Shown here: positions 31,067 to 60,600 of the stretch, in pieces
Position numbering within the stretch: the first letter of the stretch is position 1
How the letters are laid out: every line of letters begins with the position of its first letter
Assembly (NCBI GenBank): GCA_023078555.1
Contig: CM041201.1
Span: forward strand, 2,797,713-2,861,712
Reading direction: 5' to 3'
Origin: Ulva prolifera
Lineage: Eukaryota; Chlorophyta; Ulvophyceae; Ulvales; Ulvaceae
DNA length: 64,000 nt
Notes under the pieces: model-generated
What the model was told of the DNA's origin: nothing
Databases searched by the model: none
Seen by the model: only the letters and a program-made list of their open reading frames with translations
Made by a program: the position numbers and the translations under genes

Positions 31067-35226
<4,160 letters not shown>

Positions 35227-42713: not shown

Positions 42714-45700
42714 TCACTCAATCGCCGTCACATCAGACGCGCCATCCTCCCCACGGTCAACAAACACAGGCCTCGATCGCGCACCTCCACGTCCGCCGCG
42801 CCCACCATGCATCACAGCGCCCACCTCCTCCACACTCAGCTCTCTCACCTCCAGCTCCTCCGCATCGCCATGCTGCACACCTGCCACCCCGCGCAACCCA
42901 AGCTCCGCCTGCAGCCTGCGCCCGATGGTCGTGCTTGCGTACTCCTTCCCCTCCCCTCCAGTCAGGTGCACAAACTGCGCAAGGTAGTACCCCTCTGCGT
43001 CGTCGCACGAGTCCCCCGCGAGCTCGCCCCACGAGTCGTAGTACGCGTACCCCTCATAGTTCTTCACCGTCTGGAAGTGTCCGGCGTCAGTGATGCAGTT
43101 AGTGGTGTCGCTCGTGGAGTCGTACGTCGTCCGGCCGTAGCTGTACGGCGACCCGTCATTGTAGAAGTGCGCGTACATGTATGCATGGCGCGTGAAGCAG
43201 AAGTCGCGCGCGTCCTCCGCCTCGATCGCGTACCACCCCCGGCCCGCCCAGCGCTCCAGCGCGCGGCTGTAGTAGTGGAACGCAGCCCACCGCGTGCTAG
43301 CGCCGCGGTTCGCGACCGTGAAGCAGCGGTTCAGCTTCACGGACGCATCGACGGTGTCGCACTCGCGCTCGATCCAGTTGTTGCCGAGGCCGGCCTGCAT
43401 GTAGCGGCAGCGGAAGCCGTCGTCGGACTCCCACTTGCGGTACTGCCGGATGTGGCACATCTCGTGTGCGAGGAGGACCGCAAGGTCGGCGATCGAGGTG
43501 GCGCGGTAGTCGGTGTGCAGGAGGATCTTGCCGGAGGACGGGGCCATGCCCTCCGCGGAGAAGTAGCCCTCGGCGCCGTCCAGGAGGGAGCACCAGCGGA
43601 TGTGCACGCCTGCACTGGCAGCCGGAGTTGCATTGAAACGTTTCGACACACGAAACGTTGATATAACAAACGCGTTTGAAACGAATCTTTCAATCGTGGT
43701 GCACAATAAGACACGTTGTTTGGGTGAAAAGGCATCTGGGTGCCGGAGGCGCCCAGCCACTTTGAGAAAAGAGAATTCCCCAGATTGAATTGAGCAGCGA
43801 CCTGTGCAATTTAAGGCCCGGGATGTCACACACCATACAATATCTAATGGCATTTGCAGCGAGTGTTCACTTTGCAGTGATGCTATGACATGTGCTGGAC
43901 TGTTGTTCACAGCGCCTGTGAGTACAGGCCTGGCTACGCCAATTTGGCTAGGGGTGCATCAGGATTCCTGTATGCATGCACCCATTGGCGCGTGGCTAGG
44001 GGTACACGTACGTGCCGCTCAGTGCGAGTTTGCTTGGGCCTCCTGAAAACGGCAAGTCCCGGCCTGCCAGCGATTCATACGTTGATATGAAACGTGAATA
44101 TTAGAAACGCGTTAACGTTAAATTTGAAACGTTTCTTATCGAAAGAAGCGCGTTTCAATGCAATTCTGCCTGCAGCGGCAGGGGTGTGGGGTGAGCGACT
44201 GTCCCCCGACTGGGTCTTAAGACGCATTCATGGGCACCAGATTGGGGACTTGGAGATGGGGTGGAGATGTGGGCGAGTCCGGAGCTCAGGCCACTATGTC
44301 ATGCTATGTGACTGTACATATGTCGCCAAGCTGGAGAGCACATGCATGCATACATCATGATGCGCTTGTTAAGTAACAGCAATATAGCTCGAGCTCAATT
44401 GAGGGTGGTGAGCCCAGGGTGGTGCCTGAGAGATTAATCAAATTTGTCCGCAGCGTGTGCGAGTCTTCGTTTTCGTTTTTCGTCTGAATGGTGTTGATGG
44501 TTCTGGCTTTCTGGTTTGCGATGTCTGACGTCAACCGTGACTCCAAGTGGAGTTGACTGGAGGCCTATCTCGCGCATGCATACGCACAGCGACATCATGG
44601 TCCAGTCACATCACCGTACTTGCCACAGTGCGTCAGCCCATCAAGGCTGCTTCATCATTGTGCTGATCTGAGTCTCGAGACTCAGCCGTGTGATCACACG
44701 TTTGTGCCGTATGCATGTGCGACTCCTGTGGCCACCTGGTGATTCCTGCTCCTGTCCTGCAAGGCCGATCATGATGTGACAGCTGATGTGACGTTCTGAG
44801 CTCAATCAATGCTGCATGCCATGCACGCAGGTCTTCAAGATATGCTATAGTATGCGCTTGAGCTCAGCTCTAGATGTTATAGAAGAGTCAACGCACCGGA
44901 CACAGCTGTACACCAGAATTTGTGCAACATCAATGTAAGTGATTGTAGATCATAATAGCTTCTCAGCAGCCAAGCGTCTTGCTGCCTCCTGTAGCCTCCT
45001 GTAGTCCGGAGGCCTCCTGTAGTTATGCTTGGCCACAAGCTGTCTAGCAACCGGACCTCACAAGATAATGCTGATAATACAATGAACTAAACGCATATGC
45101 ATGTAATGGTGGTGGTGTTCTGCAGCAGAGCTATGTGGACAGCTCCACCACTGGCAATACCACTGGCAAGATGCAGACTGATGGGGTGGACTGATTCAGT
45201 CCTTTGTTGCATAGCACGCACCCACCCATGCATGGTATTGTGGGCATGCCAGTGGTATTGTGGGCATTCAAATCGGTGCAGCTGCTATAATCGATCATAG
45301 CAGATATCCTTGCTGTGATTCCCCCTCCAGCTGCAGGGGACCCCAGCCCCAACCTCAAGTCTGCGGGCACATCAGATCAAAACAGTTTATTATGAGTTTA
45401 GATATCATATGCTGCATTTCTCAGATAGGATGTCCCAGAGAGAGCCTCTTTTTTCAGGCCATGCATGTCAACATCATCATGTATGAGATGATCTCAATTG
45501 CAAGGGCCTCCACAGATTCGCTAATCTGTAGGCTAAATTTGTAGTTATATTTAGGAGGATATCCTAGGAGGATATCCTTGTACAGAGTTTGTTTATATAC
45601 ATCCGTTCACTGGCCTGTGCTTAATACAGATTGCATGCATATGCAGATGCTTGGCTCCCAGCCCTTGAAGAATTCTGCTGCTAGCTGCGGCCAAACACAC

Positions 45701-46004
45701 AGATCTGCACAGATCTAGACGCACCGTCGAATTCGCTCCTCTGAAAGTCTCCGCCATTGATGAGCATATCCTTCGCTTCCTCGATGCGGGCCTGGTCGTC
45801 GAGGCGGCTGGGGTCGTTGCTGCAGGCGGCTTCCACCGACTGAGTCCACGCAGCCATGGGCGACGCTATCGCGAAGCACGCCTGCTTTCGAGCGCCACAG
45901 GCCAAGTCAATAGCACCGCAGGGATCCTTGCAGTCATTACAGTTGAGTGACTGCGCCAGTGCACGTGGCAGCAGGGCGGAAACGGCCAGCAACAGAGCTA
46001 ACAT
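42714..46004 (-). CDS. Secreted HExxHxxQ-motif protein, copy A
   Basis: Two minus-strand exons, 45725-46004 and 42714-43609, join in phase to 391 residues. Exon 1 gives a signal peptide (MLALLLAVSALLPRALAQ) and a Cys-rich region of about 70 residues with LNCNDCKDPC. Exon 2 begins VHIRWCSLL and holds LLAHEMCHIRQYRKW, a HExxHxxQ motif (about 142-149) as in zinc peptidase-like DUF4157 proteins, then FRCRYMQAG, FHYYSRALERWAGRGWY, FCFTRHAYMYAHFY, YYLAQFVHLTGG and an acidic tail. HExxH suggests a metal site; a third ligand is not identified and proteolytic activity is unproven. The same two-exon gene recurs 3.3 kb further on as copy B. The 2.1-kb intron is enlarged by an inverted-repeat element. 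The protein is likely exported or cell-wall located. Confidence 0.8.
43628..44163. mobile_element. Inverted-repeat element (MITE-like) in the copy A intron
   Basis: TTGCATTGAAACG at 43628-43640 is matched by CGTTTCAATGCAA at 44151-44163. Imperfect similarity continues inward (GAAACG, AACGCGTTT) for about 60 bases on each side. No coding capacity is seen over 536 bases. A target-site duplication is not clear. It ends 17 bases from the exon 2 acceptor. It is absent from the intron of copy B. Confidence 0.65.
44988..45025. repeat. GCCTCCTGTA direct repeats
   Basis: Three near-identical GCCTCCTGTA units lie in the copy A intron. Further small repeats follow: TATTGTGGGCAT twice near 45237-45270 and AGGAGGATATCCT twice near 45553-45580. 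Confidence 0.6.
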
Positions 46005-46060
46005 ATCCTCAGGCTACACAAAACTTCGAGTCCAAGTCGGCACCCTGGCCAATTAATGAC

Positions 46061-46092
46061 TTACAAAGAGTGAACGGGAGAAGACAAACACC
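46061..46092 (-). repeat. LINE family 1, 3' tip, reversed
   Basis: TTACAAAGAGTGAACGGGAG read forward is the reverse complement of the family 1 terminus. It sits about 60 bases upstream of the copy A start codon and so may lie in its promoter. Confidence 0.7.
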
Positions 46093-46790
46093 AATTGATT
46101 ATAATTATAATATTGCAAGTACCGGTACTTGGGTATACGTCAACCTCAAGGCTTGAGTGCTACTAGAAATCGACGTGAATCTGGCAGGCGGAACGTGGCA
46201 GAAGAGTGCAGGCCAGGGGGTCCATGGACACATACTACAGTATCCGGAAGGTTTTGGACGTTTCAATTGCAATTGGCGGGTCTGAAAGGGTGGGGCCACC
46301 GTGTGACATATACGTGCGAGCGAGGCCGGTTGTAGACCATCGGGTCTGCAGCATACATGATCGCTCGTCCAGCCCCTCCAGCAATCCCGAAAGTATGTCG
46401 AAGCTTCCCTCCGAATTCGAAGTCACGGCTTTGAGTTTGGTGGCCTCGCGGCGCGTGCATGCGCGTGCATGCATGTGCGGGGAGCCGAAGCTGTGCACAC
46501 CTGCGGTGCGTGGACCGCCCTATCCCATTATCCGAGCCCATGAATGCAAGCTGCTTCGCCAAGCTTGGGCCTTTCCTAGCAAAGTGTCGAGTCATGACTG
46601 CAGCTGATCAAATTGAACGGACTATCCAGGGCTTGTGCCACCATGTGTATGCATCAACACTGCAACATTTATCGATATTGATAATATTTTCAATGCAATG
46701 GCAATCCGGATCCGGATTGATCCTCGGGGCTCCATGGGCAGCTATAGTGGCAGCTATATCGGCAGTCCCGACCCCCTCTCCGGAGGACCA

Positions 46791-46834
46791 CCCCCCCCCC
46801 CCCCCCCCCCCCCCCCCCCACCCCCCCCCCCCCC
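46791..46834. repeat. C tract of about 43 bases with one A
   Basis: A run of about 28 C, one A and about 15 C. It is comparable to the run at 2731-2772, but no LINE sequence adjoins it. Confidence 0.8.
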
Positions 46835-47195
46835 TTCACTCTCCCCTGAAGGGCATGTTCATAACCAGTCATTGACCTTTGCATGCACGTGGGCTGCGGG
46901 CATGCCCGGCTCGGTGCAGCACGCGGAGTGATTGGTGCACGTGGCCGCGTTGCTCAGAGTTGTTGTGGGGAGGTTGTCGTGTCCCCGTTACGGTTCATTG
47001 TAATCGGTTCATTATAAATGCAGCCCGCCCCCGGATGGGCCATCCAAGGTGTGTAATCACGGGTGTTGGGCCGCCCAGGGCGCGGCTTCGTCGCGGACCC
47101 GCACGTATGCACAGGGGTGGGGGTGTACGTGTTTCTGCGTGTGGGTGTGTTTGTTTGTGGGTGGGTGTGTGTGAGGGCTCTGCGGCGGCGTGTAC

Positions 47196-47312
47196 AGTAA
47201 AGCAAAGTAAATCTGAATTTACTGAGCCGTACCCTATTGGACATTGACAACTCCGAGTCAACGGGACCACATATGCCGAAGGGGTAAACCACCTGGAAAC
47301 CCCCCTCAGCGT
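47196..47312 (-). repeat. LINE family 2, 3' end, reversed
   Basis: About 115 bases are nearly the reverse complement of 61946-62060. The shared block includes ACCCCTTCGGCATATGTGGT and TCAGTAAATTCAGATTTACT. It is read here as a third retroelement 3' end, because it ends in TTTACTTT-type sequence; family identity is my inference. Confidence 0.6.
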
Positions 47313-47542
47313 GTTGCAGTTGGTGTTTGTTCAGAAGTTCTGGGCCGGTGCGGGCGCTTGGGTTCGGAATGTGCCGGATGCAGTCAGTCTGCGCCGTGCT
47401 GGGTCAACGTTGATGTGCATGGAAACTCCGGAGCTGCTCGCTGACTCGATATGGTGCTGCTCCTCTCGCCTTGGTCCTCGTATACGTAACACACATTCAT
47501 GTGCATGGCTGCAGTATACATGTATACTATAGCAGTAGTGGG

Positions 47543-47590
47543 CTTACAAAAGAGTGAACGGGAGAAAACAAACACTGAAACCGAATCTCA
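47543..47590 (-). repeat. LINE family 1, 3' tip, reversed
   Basis: CTTACAAAAGAGTGAACGGG and the following AACAAACACTGAAACCGAAT are the reverse complement of the terminus at 52550-52598. Confidence 0.8.
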
Positions 47591-49339
47591 GTAGTGCATG
47601 TACTCGGGCTCAGTGCATGTAGCTGTAGTGGCCAGCTTCGGAGGCCTGTGCACTGGTGCACTTCATGAAGTTACACACCGGGCCATTGTATGGCAATTGC
47701 TTTAAAGCAAACAAACACATCAAGCCAAACCACTGACCAGCTGCCACACAAGCAACCACTAGTACTGGTCATGGCATCACAGCTCACCTCAGCCAACAAC
47801 CCGGGCTGGCCAAGTACAACTACATCAAACGCTCCGTTAACAGAGCTCTCAACCCAGAAAATCATCCACTTGTGCAGTGGGCCCTTGCCTGAACACATAC
47901 AAATGTACATCTAGCTGCAGCGAGGGCTCGAGCCTCTGATCAATGCATGTGCCAACATTGTCAGGGGTGCGAAGGCCAAGGGTGGGAGCTAGCCATGTCC
48001 GTTCCCCAGGCCGAGGAATTACTTACGCCGTGTAAGACTGCAATGGCCAGCTCGCGTTCTGCGCAGAATACGGTGTTGAGCCTGCTTGTAGACTCCGCAG
48101 CTACTAGCTTAGTAACATATGACTCCCGGCATGTGCGTCCGCACGCCTTCACAGCCCGAGCTCCGCAATATGTTTCCGGAGGGGAGTGGTGCAAATGACG
48201 GCCGAGTGCGGCTGCCCCGATCGTACGCGTATGCGGCCCTGACATGTGCAGGCCAGACACTGGCAGCGCCCGCCGAGCCGCCGGTGCACCCACATTGCCT
48301 GCCGCCAGTGGTAGAGCGGTCTTATCACTGGACTATCACAATTCCGCGCACTGAAATTTTGATAAATCTGCAACCGCAGAGCCGCTGAATTTTCCTGCAC
48401 TGTTTTTCCCAATCCGCACGCATCATGATGCAGCAGCCGCCTGGCCTTGCTGAAGTCCTGCGTTCCAGCTCACGCAGATTGCGTGGAATATGCATATGAC
48501 CGTGCATACGATGGGCAGTGGAGATGTACTCGTAGGCCCAGTGCGACAGCATGTACCGTGGCTAAAAGTGCATCAGGCTTCGGCTGAGGCAGGTATGGGC
48601 ACACAGCTCATATATGCAGGCGTCGGCTGAACCTTTTCACGCAACTCACAGCAGCAGAGTCGTGGCTGCTGCAGCTGCTTGTGAAGCAAGCCTTGGACCC
48701 CGCAGCTGTTCCGCGCTCACCCCACACTGACAGCGCCTTGCACCAAGTAGACACCGCGCGACATGCCCATGGCGGCAAACTCACAGCAAATTTACAGCTG
48801 CAGCTCACACATGTACATGTCACAACAAATCATATGGTGATGCCAGCCGCGGAGAACGCAGGCTGCAGAAGCAAACACATCACACCCCAATGCACGAATC
48901 ATCATCACATGCATGGACACCGGCTGATCGGCCTCTGCACGAGGCTCGCCAAGGCACGCCCTGCTGTCCACATCACATTCACGCTCCACAACCCCCGCCG
49001 AGCGCACACCGCGACACTGCACCAGGCTGCAGCGAAGACTGCGTCAATGGCTACGTAGATGTATATATGCAGCGCAGCGCAGGGCTACTGAAATGCAGGA
49101 TAATCCTTTCAGGCCACCGCCAGACAGCAGCATCAATCAAATCAAGATGATTATCCAGCACGTATATACGGAATTATGCATGCTGCATGCACCAACATTC
49201 AAACCACAGAGGACATACAACAACTTCAAAGTCGCAGACAGAGGCCTGCTGTACGCCTGCCGCACGTGTACAAGGTCTGGGCCAGACCACATGTACACCC
49301 TTGCACGGCAGGCTTCCGCCCACAAGCATCCCCTACACA
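47591..49339. other. Intergenic region downstream of copy B
   Basis: No gene is seen. It contains the 3' untranslated part of copy B. Confidence 0.45.
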
Positions 49340-51265
49340 TCACCCCACAGCAGTCATGTCAGACATATCATCCTCGTCCGTGTCCACAAATACCGGCCCG
49401 GAGCGGTCACCTCTGTCCCCATGCACAACTGCCTCCACCTCCTCTACACTCAGCTCGATCATCTCCACCTCCCCAGGCTCACCGTGCTCCCCATACCCGC
49501 CGGTACCCTCACTGCCAGCCCCTCCCTGCAGCAGAAGCAGCCTGCGTGCCGCGGTCGCGTCACGGGTGCGGGCGCTCGCAAAAGTACCTCCAGCTCCGCC
49601 AGTGAGGTGTTCAAACTGTGCCAGGTAGTACCCTGCGACACTTTTGCATGTGGACAAGGACCTGGGGGAGCTGCCTGGGCCCTTCACGGCATAGTACTGA
49701 ACACCCTTGTAGTCACGGGCTGTCTCGAACGGGCTCGCCGCAATGCAACTGATCGCGTCTCCTCCGCTGTACTGCAGCTCTGATTTCGAAGTGCCCTCAC
49801 CGCTGAAGAAGTGTGCGTAGAGGTACGAAGTGCGGGTGAAGCAGAAGTCGGTGACCTCGCCGGCGGGTGCGGTGTACCATCCGCGGCTCAGCCACGCGCC
49901 GAGAGCCTGGCTATAGTAGTGGAACGCCGGGTAGACGACGTCGGGGCTGTTGTTGTTGATGCGGAAGCAGCGGTGCAGCTTCACGCGGGCTTCGGCGTGC
50001 TCGCAGAGCTCCTGCATCCAGTTCACGGCGTCGCCGCCGGCGTCCATGTAGCGGCAGCGGAAGCCCGTGTCGCCCCAATCGCGGTACTGCCGGACATGGC
50101 ACATCTGGTGGGCGATCGCATGCGCGAGGTCCGCGACGGGCTTGCTGGTGAGATCATGGTTGAGGAGGATCTTGTATCGGCTCACTGTCATGCCGTCCTC
50201 GCCGAACTGCCCGAAGCCCTGCCACCACGGGCACCATCGGATTGTTACGCCTGCATGCATGGCATGGTGCATAGGTGACATTTACAGCGCGCATGACGCC
50301 TCGTCTGGGTCACAGGTTTGTGGCTGTATATCATTGATGCCATCATGGTGATGCCATGACTGGCCAGTCGGCCGGGTAATAGTTCAAGGGGCTACTGTAA
50401 GTCACGGGCGGGCAATCAGGCCCGAGCCAGGCTGTTGTCCGGACCACGGACGACTGCATGCATGTATGCGCAGCTAATTCATATTGTTACAAGGACAAAG
50501 GCAGCAAGGCGGGCAGCACCGCGAAAGAAGCAAACTAATTAATATTGCAACAGGAACAGAGTGCACCTTGAGAGTGCACCTGACAGCTTTGCACCACGGG
50601 GGCCCCTACCGCAGTATGGAGCCGCCTGGCAGCTGTCATTCCACGCTATATATAGCCCAAAAAAACGTACTATATAGTATGTGCTATGTACACAGTGGCT
50701 GTGCACGCAGGCGCAGAATTGTGCCAGTTGCAAGGTACCATCAGCCATGGCCAGCACGCACCTCCTCAGCCACTGGCAGGGCTAGGCCCTACACCGGGCG
50801 TGCATGCAGCGGATGCGCATGCATATGCATGGGCTGCCTTTGGACTGTGATAGGGTCGGGGGTTCCTGAGGGATTGACTACAATGAATCCCTACTAGTAC
50901 TACTATTAGTAAGGAATCCCCGACCCTAAGACACATGCATGGACAAAGCAGTGCATGCAGCTGCGGCAGGGGCGCGTACTCCAGAAGTCGCTCTCAGTAA
51001 AGTCTCCACCATCAATGAGCATCCTCTTCGCGTCTTCGATGCGGGTCACCCATTCGCCGTACCCCCACCAGTCGGCGCAAGTCGAGTCCACATCCGAGGA
51101 CCAGTCAGCAAGCTGTTTTTGTAGATCCGAGCACTCATTGCAGTCGGCGTCGTTCGCGTTACAAGAATACTGACAGCTGTTGCAGTCTAGCGCAGCCGCG
51201 AACGGCGCCCCGTGCAGGGCGAACAACGAGAGCAACAGAGCCAGCATCCACGTTAACGTAACCAT
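49340..51265 (-). CDS. Secreted HQxxHxxQ-motif protein, copy B
   Basis: Two minus-strand exons, 50980-51265 and 49340-50250, join in phase to 398 residues. The layout matches copy A: signal peptide MVTLTWMLALLLSLFALHG, Cys-rich segment LDCNSCQYSCNANDADCNEC, then VTIRWCPWW, AHAIAHQMCHVRQYRDW, FRCRYMDAGG, FHYYSQALGAWLSRGWY, FCFTRTSYLYAHFF, YYLAQFEHLTGG and an acidic tail ending ELSVEEVEAVVHG...VFVD. The exon boundary is at the same place and phase. The motif reads HQMCH where copy A has HEMCH, so a Glu-dependent zinc peptidase mechanism would not work here. It may be a binding or decoy form, or the family may not be catalytic. The frame is intact and the tail is conserved, arguing against a dead gene. 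Confidence 0.8.
50485..50530 (-). repeat. LINE 3' tip, family 3 relative, in the copy B intron
   Basis: GTTACAAGGACAAAGGCAGC and GCGGGCAGCACCGCGAAAG match the reverse complement of 63735-63812 with few changes. Confidence 0.65.
50851..50927. repeat. Hairpin-forming inverted repeat in the copy B intron
   Basis: AGGGTCGGGGGTTCC (50851-50865) pairs with GGAATCCCCGACCCT (50913-50927), with one mismatch. The 47-base loop includes alternating TACTAGTA-type sequence. It lies about 50 bases inside the intron from the donor. Confidence 0.65.
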
Positions 51266-54623: not shown

Positions 54624-57600
54624 CTACACCGCCCCAAGCGCAAAGAATGTGAGCCCGCCGACGATCCACTGCCGCATTTCTGCCGCGACAGCCGCCCCCC
54701 GCTCGGACACCACTGTCACATTGATGTGCGCACTATCCACAGGGTTCACCTCAACGCGCGTCAGCACGGAGTCCCCGGCCGCGAGCACCGCCTGGCCTGC
54801 GTAATTCAACGGGCTCGTCGGGTCGAGCCGCGTGCCGCCGTCGGAGAACCCTAGCCGCGCCATGCGCCCCGTCAGGACGTCGCCGCTCGGCAGCGCCGCC
54901 GGCAGCCGCGACATCCCGGTCGCGACGTTCCCACCCGCATGCGAATTCTCCGCGGACAGCCGGCCCCACGCGCTGAAGAACGACGCCTGTGAGACACTTT
55001 CCGCGGCGACGGCGAATGAGCCGACGGTGAGCGGCAGCTCGACACGGTACAGCACGCGGCCCTCCACGGGCGCGGTATACGCGATTGTGATGACCGATTC
55101 TGCCGGGCCGCCGGGTGGCGGAGCCGGCACGGCCCCCGACGCGGCCCCCCGCGCAATCAGCTGCAGCTGAAGCTGCTCCTGCGGCTGCAACGCGCCCGGG
55201 ACGGTGGCGAGGGCGACGGACGGGACCGCCGGAGACGGCGCGACCGTCACCGAGAAGTCCGCGAGCGACGTCTCCTCGCGTTTGTTCCCCGCGAACAGCG
55301 TGATCACACGCGAGCCGCTGCGCTCCGGCGGCGCCGCGACGAACCCTAGCTGCAGCGCGGAGTCCTCTAGCAGCACCCCCTTGCCGAGGTAGAGCATGCG
55401 GTCCCGGTCCGGGCTCGCGGCCGGCGGGGGCGCGGTCAGCATGCCGGCGGACGGCACGTCAAGCGGAACCGCCACACCCACCGGCGTCGCCACCGGCTGT
55501 GCGGATGGGTTGAATGTCGAGAGCTGCACCTCCCCGGTTCCGGAGGCTGATGGGACGTGGGAGGAGGTGGTGGAGAGGACCCCGGGGTCAAAGACCGCGG
55601 TGGTCGGCGCCGCGGGCGAGGGCGGAGGGTAGGTGCCGTTGGTGTAGGGGGCCGGGGCAACGGTGGGGGTGTCGAGGACCGCGAGCGGGTCCGCGGTGGT
55701 AGCGGCGTCTAGCAGCCCGGATGGGGCTGCGGCGTGTGACGTCGTCGCTTGCGCGGCTCTGTCTGCTGCCGCTTCGGCGACAGAGTCCATCGCTAGAAGG
55801 TCGTCTGCGCACAGGTGGCAGATGGTCGCATTGAATGAGGCAATTCGCCGATGTGTTGCGGTGATCGGGGGTGGTGTGTGCGACTGCGGAGGCGACATTC
55901 CGATGGACAGAGAGAATTCACAGCGCTGTCTTTCTGAGAAGCGTGTGCGGCCGCTCGGACATCCCAAAAGCCAGACCAGCATTGACTGACATCGGCTTGA
56001 ACAGCACACGACAAGTAAAACTCCATGCTCGTGAATGGCCAGAGAATCAGACTGCAGCACATGCCGACTGGCGACGGAGCGGGCAGATGAACAATGCAAT
56101 GCCATGGGTGTCAGCTACTCCTAAAGCAGCATGTCTCAGCATCACCACCACCAAACTGTGCACGCACTGGGGTCCTATCAACGCACGCCGTTGGCCGACA
56201 GGCAAGTGCGTATGCATGCATAGCCAGGTCGTTGTTATCACGCAACAGCTGAGCGTGGCCTCACCCTTCACTGCCGGAGCTGTCGCATTCATGTCCACGC
56301 TGCGCCGCACGGCCGCCGTCTCGCGGCCGCCGTTGCGCAGAAGCGCCTCCGGCGTCGGCACCACCTCGGTCTCTCCACCCGAGACGGCGGCCCGCTCCGC
56401 CGCCGCCTCCTCCACGGCCGCCCGCGACGGGCTGCTACTACCCTTCGCGACGCTACCTGCATCTGACGCCACCGCACCCGTCGGGCTGACTGGCCCCGGC
56501 CCGGCGGCCTCTCCCCCGCCGGTTTCAGCCGCCGCGAGGTTCGGGAACAGCGGCCGCTGCTCCGTCCACTCCGGCATCGGCGCAAAAACGGCCTCCCGAA
56601 CGAGCGGGTTGCTCGCCATGTAGCTCAGCTCGAGGTACTCGACTGCCCGCTGCTGGATGTCCGGGTTCGCGTTGGCGGAGTACGCGGTGAAGGTGTCGGT
56701 CACGAGCTTCTCGAGGGCGCGGTCGTCCGGCGCATGCATGCGGAGCTTGATGAGCGCGGTGAGGAGCAGGCCCTGGGTGGGGACGGGGGTGTAGGGCAGG
56801 CGGGTGGCGAGCTCTTCTGCGAGCTGGCCGGGGGTGCGGTCCGGGACTTGGTCTGCAAACTCCGCGAGCACGTACCTGCACCAGCCACGGCGGTGTGCGG
56901 ACCGCGTGCATGACAGCATCGTGGCGCCCACGTGCTCTGCGAAGACCTGGGTAGTTATCTACGCGGTGCCAGTGCCACCGGCTGAGCGTCCGTGGCGTCG
57001 CTGGATGACATAAATGGCAGTAGCTGCATGTGCTGACCTCAGATGAAGGGGGTGGTGCAGCGAGTTGTGCCGTAGAAGTTCTCAGACTGACTCCACCAGC
57101 ATCAGCTGGATGTACAAGCCCAGCCTTGCGCGCCACCACACGGGCGTTCGCTTTGTGGGAGCAACACAGATGCCGTAGCAGCCACCACAGAAGCAGTGCT
57201 GCTGCAGGACATAGGTCGTATGCATGCACGGCTGCACAACAACGTATGAACAGCCAGCGTCACCGACCTCGCCCTTGGTGTCAGCCAGGTACTACGCCAG
57301 GGCAGCCCAAGGCATGAAGCACATGCATGTGGTCCCGTTAATTCGGAGATGGCATTGTCCTCTTCAGGATACAGCTCAGTAAATATGGTTTACATGCTTC
57401 CACCAGAGCTTGTTTTCCAAGTTGCCAGAGGCAGCACAGGCGTGCACGGCCGCAGTGGCCAGGGGGGGCGCACCCGGCGGTGTTGATGAGGGGCACGCTG
57501 AAGGAGCCGTCCTCGAGGGCGCGCACGATCGCTGCCGTCGTCGCGCTGCGGTCGTGCACGCTGCCCGCCACAGCATGCACAGCACGCTGCCACACGTCGT

Positions 57601-60600
57601 CGCTGACCTCGTCCGCACCGAGATCCATCAGCGCCAGCATCGTCGTCACGTACCTGCATGCGCGCGCCACCGCTCGACATCAACCAACGCCAGCGAGGCA
57701 GGTAGCACCGCATGTGTCAACTCAATTGTTGTCGTAATCCTACTTGACGGGGGGGGACCTTTTTTCAGCGACACCCCCGGCAGCAGCGTGTCACAAACTT
57801 CAGCTGAACCAGACGCGTTCGCCCGTCGCGCAACGCGGTGGCAGTTACTGGACCGCACCATTCGATGGAGGGCGCGTAGCGCTCCGCGAGGATCGCGACC
57901 CGCACGACAAGCTCCCCCCGCACCTCCGCGTCTGCGAGCGGCAGCTGCCGCACGAGCTGCGACACGACGCTCTCGACGCTGCTGCGGTCGCACGCGGCGA
58001 CGAGCACGTCGATCGCGCGCTTCTTCACCGCCGGGTCGGCGTCGCTCAGGCACGCGACGACCTGCGGCAGGTGTGGCTTGAGGGCAGTGACCATGTCGGG
58101 GGAGGCGCAGAGGCTGCAGAGGGACGAGAGGGCGATGTAGCGCGCGTTGGGGTCCTTGCGCTCGACCAGGCCGGTCATCTGCAGGCACGGGCAGCGTGGG
58201 CAGGGCTGTCAGGTGGCTGTTGGATTGCTGGCAGTGAAGGGGCTGGGGTGCTGTTCTTGTCGAGAGGCTGCGTGCTAGCACCGAAAGGCTGGCTCAGAGC
58301 CGCCATGATGTCTGGGTGAGCATGTGGGGTGGACATGGGCCATTTCCTAGCAGAACGCCATGCTCTGAAGGTCAGACACTCGAAACCTCTCACCCGCACA
58401 CACGATGCAAAGATTGGTGCACCATAGCGCCAGGTGTCCAGAGGGTGCTAGGGATTGACATACACGACTCTCACCCCCGAAGCGTGCGTTCACCCATCGA
58501 CAGGGCTGGCATCAACACCGTTCGGCGCAGCTCTGCTGCCGGCTGCCACAACGCGCTGAGCGGCTTGAACTGTACGCAGGACCTGACCTCTGCAGCTCGA
58601 GGGCAGCCGCCCGCGCTCCCGCCCCGTGCGCTGGTGGCCACCGCACCCCACAGCAGCCTCAAAACTACGCAGAGAAGCACCAAGCCAGCCGAAGCGTTGC
58701 ACCGCATGACTGCGAACGGCAGAAAGCGGCGGGGCGGTAGTGGAGGCACACCTTCGCGAGGCAGACCTTCAGCAGCGGGGTCGCCTCGATCTGCAGGCAC
58801 ACCGCCGCGGCCTCCGTCAGCACCGACGCCCGCGCGTACGCCGGGTTCTGGTTCGACTTGCCCGCCGGCACCGTCTGCTCGAGGATGTGGCTGAGGGACG
58901 CCATCAGCCGCTCGTACGTCGACGTGTGGGCGCGGTTTGGGAAGTACGACAGGGCCCGCAGGTACCTGCATGCATGCGGCCCAGTCGCGCGGCCACCACG
59001 GCAGACCTCGGGGGCAACACACACACACCCCTCGTGTGTGCATGCATGCATGTGTCCCTGGATCACGGTCACACGACGGACAGCGGCAGGTGCTCTGCTA
59101 GCGCCAGTGAAGGGTACGAGGTGGCGCCTCCGCAAGCTGCTGCTGTCGAGCGATCGCACCGCCCAGCCTTGTTCCTGGCCGCAGAGCGAAACACAGACCT
59201 GACCATCCGGGAACCATACAAGAGGGCACTCCTGCGTCCCTACACCATGCGTACGGCATGGAGGACTCCAGGCGCAGGTAGGCGGCGGAGTGTGTGGTGG
59301 TGGCCGGGGGGCGCACTTGCACTGCAGCCAGGGGCTGGGTATGCCGTAGTACAGGCACTCCCCGAATTGGCCATGGCCGGTGAGCACGGCGGCGAGGTTG
59401 TTCACGAGCGTCGGCTGCAGCGCCTCGTAGCCCCCCGGGCCCTCGCGCTCGAGCACGCCGAGCAGGAGCGCCGTGACCGCGAGGTGCATGCCGGTGCCGC
59501 GGGCGGTGGAGAGCAGGTGCTGGAAGCGCTCGCACCACACGTCGGGCGTGAGGATCGCGGCCTCCTCCGGGAGCTTCCGGTAGACGCGCAGCAGGCACAG
59601 CGCGGCCTTCTTGCGGCAGCCCTCAGAGAGGTGCGGGCTCATCTGGAGGGCAGCTTGTGGGGTTGAATGGCTGCAGCAGGGATAGCGCGGGAGAGATGCG
59701 CTCCCAGGGGCATAAAGTGGCTGTGGGGTGAGCCGCGGTGCCGAGAGACAAGATCGGTCCGTGTGAGTGGGCTGACTGTGCAGGTTGTCGTGGGGACCGT
59801 GACTCAGGCTGTGCTGGTGGGTTTCACTGCTCGTGAAGGTACACGAGCTCCAAGAGCCCTGGCCATGACAGGTCAGCTGTGCGGACAGAGGGCCAATACA
59901 AGAGGGGGACCGCACCACTGCCTCCACGACTGGCTGCGCTATTGCCGCAGACATCTCTTGCCCGGCAACTGCAGAACAGCATGAACGTTGTGTATGGTGT
60001 GGAGTATGCAGTGTCGATCGCATGTGCGAGCGGGCAGAAGTCATGCCAAGTGCAAGTGCAAGGAGGACGAACATCATCCCACCTTGCGACCTGGAAGCAT
60101 GGTGCTGGTCTATGCAGTCATGCAAGAAGATGTTTCGGGCATGGCAGACGGGACTGTTGCGGCACGTGGGAGAGACAGTACCTGAGCCAGCAAAGCAGAG
60201 CGAGAGGGACACAAAGAGCTCATTCCGAGAAGTTAGGTCCTTCAGCACATTGTTCACTGGGAGCATCATAAATTCGTCCTCCTGTACAATGTTCTCGTAC
60301 TCAGCGAGCGTCAACGGCGAAGCGGCATCGATGGTGACTGTGCCATGGCAAAATGGGCGAAGTTTGACACAACCTGTCAATCAACTGGATTGACAAGCGG
60401 CTCGAGTCACCCGCACAGGCATACCTCATTCAACAAAATTGTTAAAGCCTGATATCCGACTTGTTTCTCATCGTAGTTGTTGGATGGAATGAGGTCTGCA
60501 GCCTGCTTGTGGCCAAAGTCGACGTCATATCCCATCATGTGGGAATACAGGAGCTTCCATGTATACTTCTTGCGATCATACGCTGAACATGCCAGGCTCA

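What the first reader, a model, noticed from the sequence alone, without database searches (positions are those of the whole stretch)
42714..51265. Tandem secreted gene pair with a HExxHxxQ motif, one copy keeping Glu and the other carrying Gln
Both genes have the same two-exon structure and intron phase, a signal peptide, a Cys-rich first exon and a long second exon with AHEMCHIRQY (A) or AHQMCHVRQY (B). HExxHxxQ is typical of DUF4157-type peptidase-like domains, best known from bacteria; I do not know this two-part architecture from algae. The clean Glu to Gln change in an otherwise intact paralogue suggests a catalytic/non-catalytic pair, or a family in which the motif serves binding.
Basis: partly seen in the sequence, partly recalled or inferred. 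Interest (0 to 1): 0.78.

Follow-up and report, generated by a model that had tools for sequence, protein, structure and literature searches.

The report
Algal active/inactive secreted metallopeptidase-like gene pair
Two neighbouring genes in a photosynthetic eukaryote encode secreted proteins built from bacterial-type parts, a small zinc-peptidase-like domain and a second domain of unknown role; one copy keeps the residues expected for catalysis and its twin has lost two of them, which suggests a working enzyme paired with a dead twin.

Summary
Genes A (exons 46004-45725, 43609-42714) and B (51247-50980, 50250-49340), minus strand, are tandem two-exon paralogues with a phase-1 intron, a signal-like N-terminus and 14 of 14 aligned cysteines (48% identity). 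A has HEMCHxxQ, B HQMCHxxQ. Two domains follow exon 1: an HExxH domain related to DUF4157/eCIS_core, the HExxHxxQ-E "PVC-metallopeptidase" (hhalign 96.5%, above all 100 motif-keeping shuffles), and a DUF1036-like domain (94.4%; score 45.1, best of 200 shuffles 20.8). Neither passes its Pfam cut-off. The closest protein found is an intronless hypothetical protein on a Rhizobium plasmid (E 1e-6) that also matches across the splice junction. B has a second loss: the Glu that hhalign aligns with the third-ligand Glu (13 of 13 DUF4157 proteins) is Gln in B. So A is probably a secreted minigluzincin-type peptidase and B a pseudopeptidase. Activity is untested, the structure model is weak (pLDDT 61.6), and aligners disagree on which of two adjacent Glu in A is the ligand; B has neither. 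tblastn found only these two copies in the genome. No other algal genome could be searched, so recurrence of E/Q pairs is unknown. New variant of a known kind, moderately interesting.

The parts
45725..46004 (-). Gene A exon 1: signal-like stretch and Cys-rich segment (6 Cys)
   Evidence: the last 25 residues match Rhizobium P0001 across the junction
43610..45724 (-). Gene A intron (2115 nt, GT..AG, phase 1)
43628..44163 (.). MITE-like element in the A intron, 13-bp terminal inverted repeats TTGCATTGAAACG
42714..43609 (-). Gene A exon 2: zincin-like domain, DUF1036-like domain, Cys-containing region, acidic C-terminal tail
43452..43466 (-). HEMCH (HExxH) of A; Gln of HExxHxxQ at 43443-43445
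43356..43373 (-). IERECD of A: putative third zinc ligand Glu (first E by hhalign, second E by MAFFT)
   Evidence: hhalign pairs the first E with the Glu present in 13 of 13 DUF4157 proteins; MAFFT alignment A8 pairs the second E
43071..43322 (-). DUF1036-like domain of A (hmmscan stretch)
50980..51247 (-). Gene B exon 1 (alternative in-frame ATG at 51265), 6 Cys
50251..50979 (-). Gene B intron (729 nt, GT..AG, phase 1)
49340..50250 (-). Gene B exon 2: same domains as A
50096..50110 (-). HQMCH of B: catalytic Glu replaced by Gln (GAG in A, CAG in B)
50000..50017 (-). MQELCE of B: Gln (CAG) where A has the first Glu (GAG) and Leu (CTC) where A has the second
49715..49966 (-). DUF1036-like domain of B (hmmscan stretch)

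Best explanation
A and B are soluble secreted proteins made of a signal peptide, a Cys-rich N-terminal segment, a small zincin domain related to the bacterial DUF4157/eCIS_core (PVC-metallopeptidase) family, a DUF1036-like domain and a conserved acidic tail. A keeps the two His, the catalytic Glu and a third-ligand Glu, and most likely cleaves a peptide bond in the cell wall space or outside the cell. B keeps the two His and Gln of HxxxHxxQ but has Gln for the catalytic Glu and lacks the third-ligand Glu. It most likely no longer cleaves and acts as a binding partner, decoy or regulator of A or of A's substrate. Shown: gene structure, paralogy, cysteine conservation, homology of the zincin domain to bacterial proteins, and the substitutions. 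Inferred: secretion, disulphides, zinc binding, catalysis by A, inactivity of B, and a binding role for the DUF1036-like domain.
For: Gene structure and paralogy. A bacterial relative among 72,556 plasmids at 1e-6 (A) and 9e-4 (B); reciprocally, that protein's two best places in the algal genome are A (4.4e-8) and B (9.1e-5). HMM of 8 DUF4157 proteins: B 20.3, A 17.7, P0001 12.9 bits; best of 900 shuffles 4.2; of 231 other HExxH ORFs from the loci then held, only L022 (19.5, itself eCIS_core above cut-off) and L015 (18.7) exceed A. hhalign 96.5%, score 54.3, against a best of 18.0 in 100 column shuffles and 43.6 in 100 shuffles that keep the AHEMCHIRQ block. The Glu that hhalign pairs with the first E of IERECD is present in 13 of 13 DUF4157 sequences, while the position of the second E is Glu in only 7 of 13. 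B has Gln and Leu at these places. DUF1036. AF2 zincin model with three strands, a helix holding HExxH and a later helix holding IERECD, similar to the three-strand, three-helix layout given for the PVC-metallopeptidase in PMC3482391 section 13.
Against: Neither domain reaches its Pfam gathering score, and the DUF1036 family searched directly in the own genome gives 0 matches at E <= 10. The first DUF1036 test, with 11 alphaproteobacterial sequences, was inconclusive (B 10.9, A 4.7 bits; best shuffle 10.0). The AF2 model has mean pLDDT 61.6 and 44-52 along the last helix; it was built with DUF4157 sequences, so it is not independent; and HExxH lies on its first helix, whereas the paper puts the His on the second (the N-terminal part encoded by exon 1 was not modelled). 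Foldseek gives no match at E <= 0.001. MAFFT does not pair the first Glu of IERECD with the family Glu: in A8 it pairs the second, and it does not align the motif with P0001's LEREAY. The Asp four residues after the first Glu in A is Tyr in P0001 and Tyr, Val or Arg in 13 of 13 DUF4157 sequences. Pairwise dN/dS in the zincin segment is about 0.9, so constraint there is not strong.
Confidence: 0.6

Rival explanations
1. Neither protein is a peptidase. The DUF4157-type fold serves as a binding or structural module in both, and the HE/HQ difference is neutral drift in an unused site.
For: [quoted passage not shown] dN/dS of about 0.9 in the zincin segment.
Against: A keeps H, E, H, Q and the third Glu, and B lost the catalytic Glu and the third-ligand Glu while keeping both His, the Gln and 14 of 14 Cys. 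Random drift would not obviously spare A.
Confidence: 0.2
2. B is a decaying duplicate on its way to becoming a pseudogene, with no function of its own.
For: Two active-site losses; relaxed divergence in the zincin segment.
Against: Intact 392-codon frame, matched splice sites, 14 of 14 Cys kept, conserved C-terminal tail, overall dN 0.50 against dS 1.07.
Confidence: 0.12
3. The similarity to DUF4157 is limited to the HExxH helix, and the domain is another zincin such as SprT-like, M48 or IrrE.
For: P0001 gives SprT-like at 23 bits against a cut-off of 25.6, M48 at 11.8 and no eCIS_core. Proteins that I judge HtpX-like by eye match the same helix. Foldseek's best match is PprI. Shuffles that keep only the motif block reach 94.3% in hhalign.
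Against: The hhalign match runs over 51 columns including the W...F..RY segment and the Glu motif, and scores above all 100 motif-kept shuffles.
Confidence: 0.25

Closest known systems
Rhizobium sp. CCGE531 plasmid protein WP_162944143 (P0001), hypothetical
   Same: Signal-like N-terminus, Cys-rich N-terminal part, GGVTIRWC..AHEMTHIREYRR..FKCEY..LEREAY; matches A and B across their splice junction
   Different: No intron; 250 aa, ending soon after the zincin part, so no DUF1036-like domain (none listed by Pfam); Glu kept at both sites
Stand-alone DUF4157 (PF13699, eCIS_core) proteins of Rhizobium, Klebsiella, Pseudomonas and Rhodobacter plasmids
   Same: HExxHxxQ, W...F..RY, following Glu; several begin with a signal-like stretch by eye
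   Different: No comparably Cys-rich N-terminus by eye. Of the 8 used, R. sullae passes the Pfam cut-off, 4 are annotated DUF4157 and 3 are neither annotated nor scanned; the algal pair is not listed at all for this model
PVC-metallopeptidase domains of contractile injection system toxins (PMC3482391, section 13 read in full; PMC8213781, passages only)
   Same: HExxHxxQ-E signature; 3 strands and 3 helices
   Different: There usually the N-terminal part of larger toxins that are exported by a phage-tail-like system; here intron-bearing eukaryotic genes with signal-like N-termini. I did not search the algal genome for injection-system genes
DUF1036 (PF06282)
   Same: Shared pattern over 73 columns, from N-x-T/S through the W..GW segment and Y-x-YA to C...F
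   Different: Below the Pfam cut-off; fused behind a peptidase-like domain. Of the 15 plasmid DUF1036 loci opened, 12 are annotated as single proteins of 121-163 aa, L164 is 335 aa, and L171 and L174 carry no annotation
PprI, abylysin and selecase (recalled as M78 peptidase and minigluzincins)
   Same: Ranks 1-3 in Foldseek with the zincin model
   Different: E 0.32, 0.54 and 1.0, not significant

Membership tests
DUF4157 / eCIS_core (PF13699) | Pfam gathering score 22 bits | tested here: not met
   hmmscan of both second exons at E <= 10 lists no eCIS_core
DUF4157 / eCIS_core (PF13699) | HExxHxxQ, gene A | tested here: met
   HEMCHIRQ
DUF4157 / eCIS_core (PF13699) | HExxHxxQ, gene B | tested here: not met
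   HQMCHVRQ, Glu replaced by Gln
DUF4157 / eCIS_core (PF13699) | Third-ligand Glu after the HExxH helix, gene A | tested here: met
   hhalign pairs the first E of IERECD with the Glu found in 13 of 13; MAFFT A8 pairs the second E
DUF4157 / eCIS_core (PF13699) | Third-ligand Glu after the HExxH helix, gene B | tested here: not met
   Gln or Leu, by whichever alignment
DUF4157 / eCIS_core (PF13699) | Profile-profile similarity beyond the motif | tested here: met
   96.5%, score 54.3 against 43.6 for the best of 100 motif-kept shuffles
DUF4157 / eCIS_core (PF13699) | Zincin fold with 3 strands and 3 helices, His on the second helix | tested here: inconclusive
   AF2 model has 3 strands and 3 helices but HExxH on the first modelled helix, pLDDT 61.6; Foldseek not significant
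DUF1036 (PF06282) | Pfam gathering score 23 bits | tested here: not met
   14.4 (A) and 15.5 (B) bits
DUF1036 (PF06282) | Profile similarity above shuffles | tested here: met
   16-sequence HMM: 18.5 and 18.0 bits, best of 2000 shuffles 9.5, best of 3276 other ORFs 6.5; hhalign 94.4%. An earlier 11-sequence HMM was inconclusive
Catalytic metallopeptidase | Zinc-dependent hydrolysis | not testable with these tools
   Needs purified protein
SprT-like (PF10263) | Pfam gathering score 25.6 bits | tested here: not met
   Not listed for A or B; P0001 23 bits

The most novel reading that the evidence does not exclude
A photosynthetic eukaryote took over a secreted bacterial PVC-type metallopeptidase, fused it to a DUF1036 module, and duplicated it into an enzyme plus a pseudoenzyme that regulates or competes with it at the cell surface. 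This would be a eukaryotic secreted use of a domain known from bacterial contractile injection systems.
Probability: 0.35. Interest if true: 0.68.

Novelty: new variant of a known kind. Interest (0 to 1): 0.52.

Why it matters
If right, this is a peptidase/pseudopeptidase pair in one tandem locus, with the catalytic Glu and the neighbouring third-ligand segment changed in one copy while the His residues, the cysteines and the rest of the frame are kept. That is a compact natural experiment on how secreted pseudoenzymes arise. It also extends the DUF4157 metallopeptidase domain, whose role in bacteria was called unstudied in PMC8213781 (passages), to an algal secretory protein, and joins it to DUF1036, a domain named in only one paper of the library searched and there once.

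Tried and rejected
AF2 on the whole second exon of A with A and B only gave pLDDT 39.6 and was discarded. The pdb_via library was not available. tblastn of A against phages gave nothing at E <= 1, and P0001 against phages only E 7-9. Six scans of viral contigs and two of genome contigs were made. Searches looked for the algal/Rhizobium family itself: 13 gave one phage zincin (L003), 14, 29 and 52 nothing, 28 five loci that I judge HtpX-like (two read). Over the loci held, no ORF outside A, B and P0001 scored above 33.2 bits with the A4 profile (A, B and P0001: 119-141). Searches looked for DUF4157 proteins and gave 2 and 6 loci. 396 genomes of the phylum of G001 (Actinomycetota, judged by the title of L005) were searched with A4: 28 of 396 matched at E <= 0.01, and none of the 28 matches reaches the IRWC positions. 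eCIS_core and DUF1036 searched directly in the own genome: 0 matches; the eCIS_core control rang in none of 14 genomes, so that zero is uninformative. The CD59 hit of exon 1 (15.3 bits, cut-off 33.9) was rejected as cysteine composition. Similarity of the Cys-rich part of exon 1 alone to P0001 is marginal (37 and 75 of 2000 shuffles reach the score), so only the junction side is claimed. A third weak place in the own genome (L032, E 0.028) was judged chance by eye. Sequencing error as the cause of HQ was rejected because the IERECD segment differs too, in a full open frame.
Full report
Observation. On the minus strand, gene A (46004-42714) and gene B (51247-49340, with another in-frame ATG at 51265) each have two exons and one phase-1 GT..AG intron (2115 and 729 nt). 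They encode 391 and 392 residues with 182 identities in 377 aligned positions. Both start with a hydrophobic signal-like stretch and have no later hydrophobic window above 1.15 (hydropathy only). 14 of 14 cysteines align. A reads AHEMCHIRQY, B reads AHQMCHVRQY. The genome is an 88.9 Mb assembly with 38 light-harvesting-protein matches, counted exon by exon, so it is a photosynthetic eukaryote. tblastn with A finds only A and B in it at E <= 10. Other eukaryotic-looking genes flank the pair in the same contig: thioredoxin reductase and thioredoxin stretches above their cut-offs, adaptin stretches below theirs, and a 2OG-Fe(II) oxygenase exon above its cut-off. With the introns, this argues against bacterial contamination.

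Bacterial relative. tblastn of A against 72,556 plasmids found one record (1e-6, E limit 1). B finds the same record at 9e-4, and a second, Rhizobium sullae, at E 4. The first encodes P0001 of Rhizobium sp. CCGE531: signal-like N-terminus, Cys-rich part, then GGVTIRWC...IAHEMTHIREYRR...FKCEY...PLEREAYD. Searched back, P0001's best places in the algal genome are A and B (4.4e-8 and 9.1e-5; a third place at 0.028 looks like chance). P0001 has no intron, yet its sequence aligns across the algal exon junction: shuffling only the exon-1 side never reached the score for A in 2000 trials and did so 8 times for B. This supports the splice model and the homology together. The Cys-rich part alone is only marginally similar (37 and 75 of 2000 shuffles reach the score).

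Zincin domain. No peptidase model of Pfam, NCBIfam or PHROGs is listed for A or B at E <= 10, apart from a PHROG of unknown function at E 0.42 for B. The weak Rhizobium sullae hit turned out to be a DUF4157/eCIS_core protein (27.7 bits, cut-off 22). It opened a set of 15 plasmid records, of which 8 proteins were used (R. sullae and loci L155-L161; the other 7 records were not fetched). An HMM from their cores scored B 20.3, A 17.7 and P0001 12.9 bits; the best of 900 shuffles reached 4.2. Of 231 other HExxH ORFs from the loci then held (frames of L001, L002, L004, L030 and L031 left out, because they hold A, B and P0001), L022 and L015 scored above A, and both lean to eCIS_core (26.9 and 13.2 bits, cut-off 22). 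With 5 viral-contig members added (13 in all), hhalign of A, P0001 and B gave 96.5%, score 54.3, over 51 columns. 100 column shuffles reached at most 18.0, and 100 shuffles that kept the AHEMCHIRQ block at most 43.6, median 28.2. So much of the signal is the motif, but not all of it.

Active site. In PMC3482391 section 13 (read) the PVC-metallopeptidase is defined by HExxHxxQ-E, with the His residues on the second helix and the Glu on the third. hhalign pairs the first Glu of IERECD in A with the Glu of the VEDEAY-type motif, present in 13 of 13; the position two further on is Glu in 7 of 13. P0001 has LEREAY. The MAFFT alignment used for AF2 instead pairs the second Glu of A. B has MQELCE there, that is Gln and Leu, so it lacks the Glu by either alignment. 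The HE/HQ difference and the first Glu/Gln difference are both GAG versus CAG. Other Glu residues in B's MQELCE could still bind a metal, so B is called non-catalytic, not metal-free.

Structure. AF2 on exon 2 with two sequences failed (pLDDT 39.6). With 7 sequences (A, B and 5 viral DUF4157 members) the 107-residue zincin segment gave pLDDT 61.6, with strands at 3-6, 22-25 and 28-31 and helices at 40-59 (HExxH), 63-73 and 79-100 (which holds both Glu of IERECD). That resembles the published three-strand, three-helix description, but HExxH is on the first helix of the model, not the second; the part encoded by exon 1 was not modelled. Confidence is low in the last helix, and the alignment already assumes the relationship. 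Foldseek found 26 matches at E <= 10 and none at E <= 0.001; the first three were PprI, abylysin and selecase, which I recall as HExxH metallopeptidases.

Second domain. Pfam gives DUF1036 below threshold at the same place in both (14.4 and 15.5 bits, E 0.06 and 0.03, cut-off 23); the same family searched directly in the own genome gives nothing at E <= 10. A first HMM from 11 proteins found with a probe from memory was inconclusive (B 10.9, A 4.7 bits; best shuffle 10.0). Five more members were then added: three labelled DUF1036, one actinobacterial protein over the Pfam cut-off, from the single positive among 396 genomes, and one from a Streptomyces plasmid (24.8 bits). The 16-sequence HMM gives A 18.5 and B 18.0 bits, against 9.5 for the best of 2000 shuffles and 6.5 for the best of 3276 other ORFs. 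Single pairwise scores are weaker: between 0 and 20 of 2000 shuffles reach them. hhalign gives 94.4%, score 45.1, over 73 columns, against 20.8 for the best of 200 shuffles. I take this domain as DUF1036-like. What DUF1036 does is not known to me. The one paper found mentions it once, as an interactome hub in Liberibacter reported essential in L. crescens (passage seen). Two Phyllobacterium copies sit between tagH, labelled type VI secretion, and a PP2C gene.

Mechanism. The most likely picture is a secreted, disulphide-stabilised zinc peptidase (A) whose DUF1036-like domain and tail position it on a substrate or surface, with a catalytically dead paralogue (B) that still binds. Shown: gene structure, homology, substitutions. 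Inferred: secretion, zinc, activity, inactivity, partnership. Pairwise dN/dS is 0.46 overall, but about 0.9 in the zincin segment, where dS is also oddly low (0.51). That fits relaxed or accelerated change of the active-site domain in one copy, but a pair cannot say which.

Novelty. The pieces are known bacterial families. The combination (Cys-rich, DUF4157-like, DUF1036-like) in an algal secreted protein, and the E/Q twin, I have not found described. The searches were limited: DUF1036 (1 paper), DUF4157 with algae (2 papers), HExxHxxQ with secreted (1 paper), DUF4157/eCIS terms (6 papers), and broader terms. I saw listings only, except passages of PMC8213781, PMC10687234 and PMC3482391 and section 13 of the last.

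Noticed in passing
43628-44163: MITE-like element with 13-bp terminal inverted repeats in the A intron, close to the exon-2 acceptor; 31 matching pieces (itself included) in the own genome. It helps explain why the A intron is longer than the B intron.
   Followed up: partly
46065-46091 and 47549-47575: A 27-base word AAAGAGTGAACGGGAGAARACAAACAC occurs 657 times exactly in the genome (328 forward, 329 reverse; pattern read backwards: 0). One copy lies about 60 bases upstream of gene A's ATG, in the opposite orientation to the gene. Nature unknown: a repeat end or a shared 5' element.
   Followed up: partly
42714-51265, zincin segment of exon 2: Pairwise dS between A and B is 0.51 in the zincin segment but above 1.2 in the other three segments, while dN is similar throughout: possible partial gene conversion or codon constraint.
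   Followed up: no
C-terminal ends of A and B (about 42714-42810 and 49340-49440): A conserved acidic tail ELSVEEVxAVxHGxRGxR..PVFVD..ED..SDxTA follows a variable region; its conservation suggests a function.
   Followed up: no
33271-35223, + strand: Pyridine nucleotide-disulphide oxidoreductase and thioredoxin stretches in succession, like an NTRC-type thioredoxin reductase (the NTRC name is recalled).
   Followed up: no
676-1839, + strand: Reverse transcriptase frame, RVT_1 38.8 bits, cut-off 29.6.
   Followed up: no
54627-60380, - strand: Adaptin N and C domain stretches, each below its Pfam cut-off, probably exons of one adaptin large-subunit gene.
   Followed up: no
L004 3692-5851: The Rhizobium relative lies next to a multiubiquitin-domain gene and a proline-rich hypothetical protein on a conjugative plasmid.
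   Followed up: no
L168 and L175: DUF1036 genes stand between tagH (type VI secretion FHA protein) and a PP2C phosphatase gene in two Phyllobacterium plasmids, a lead for what DUF1036 does.
   Followed up: no
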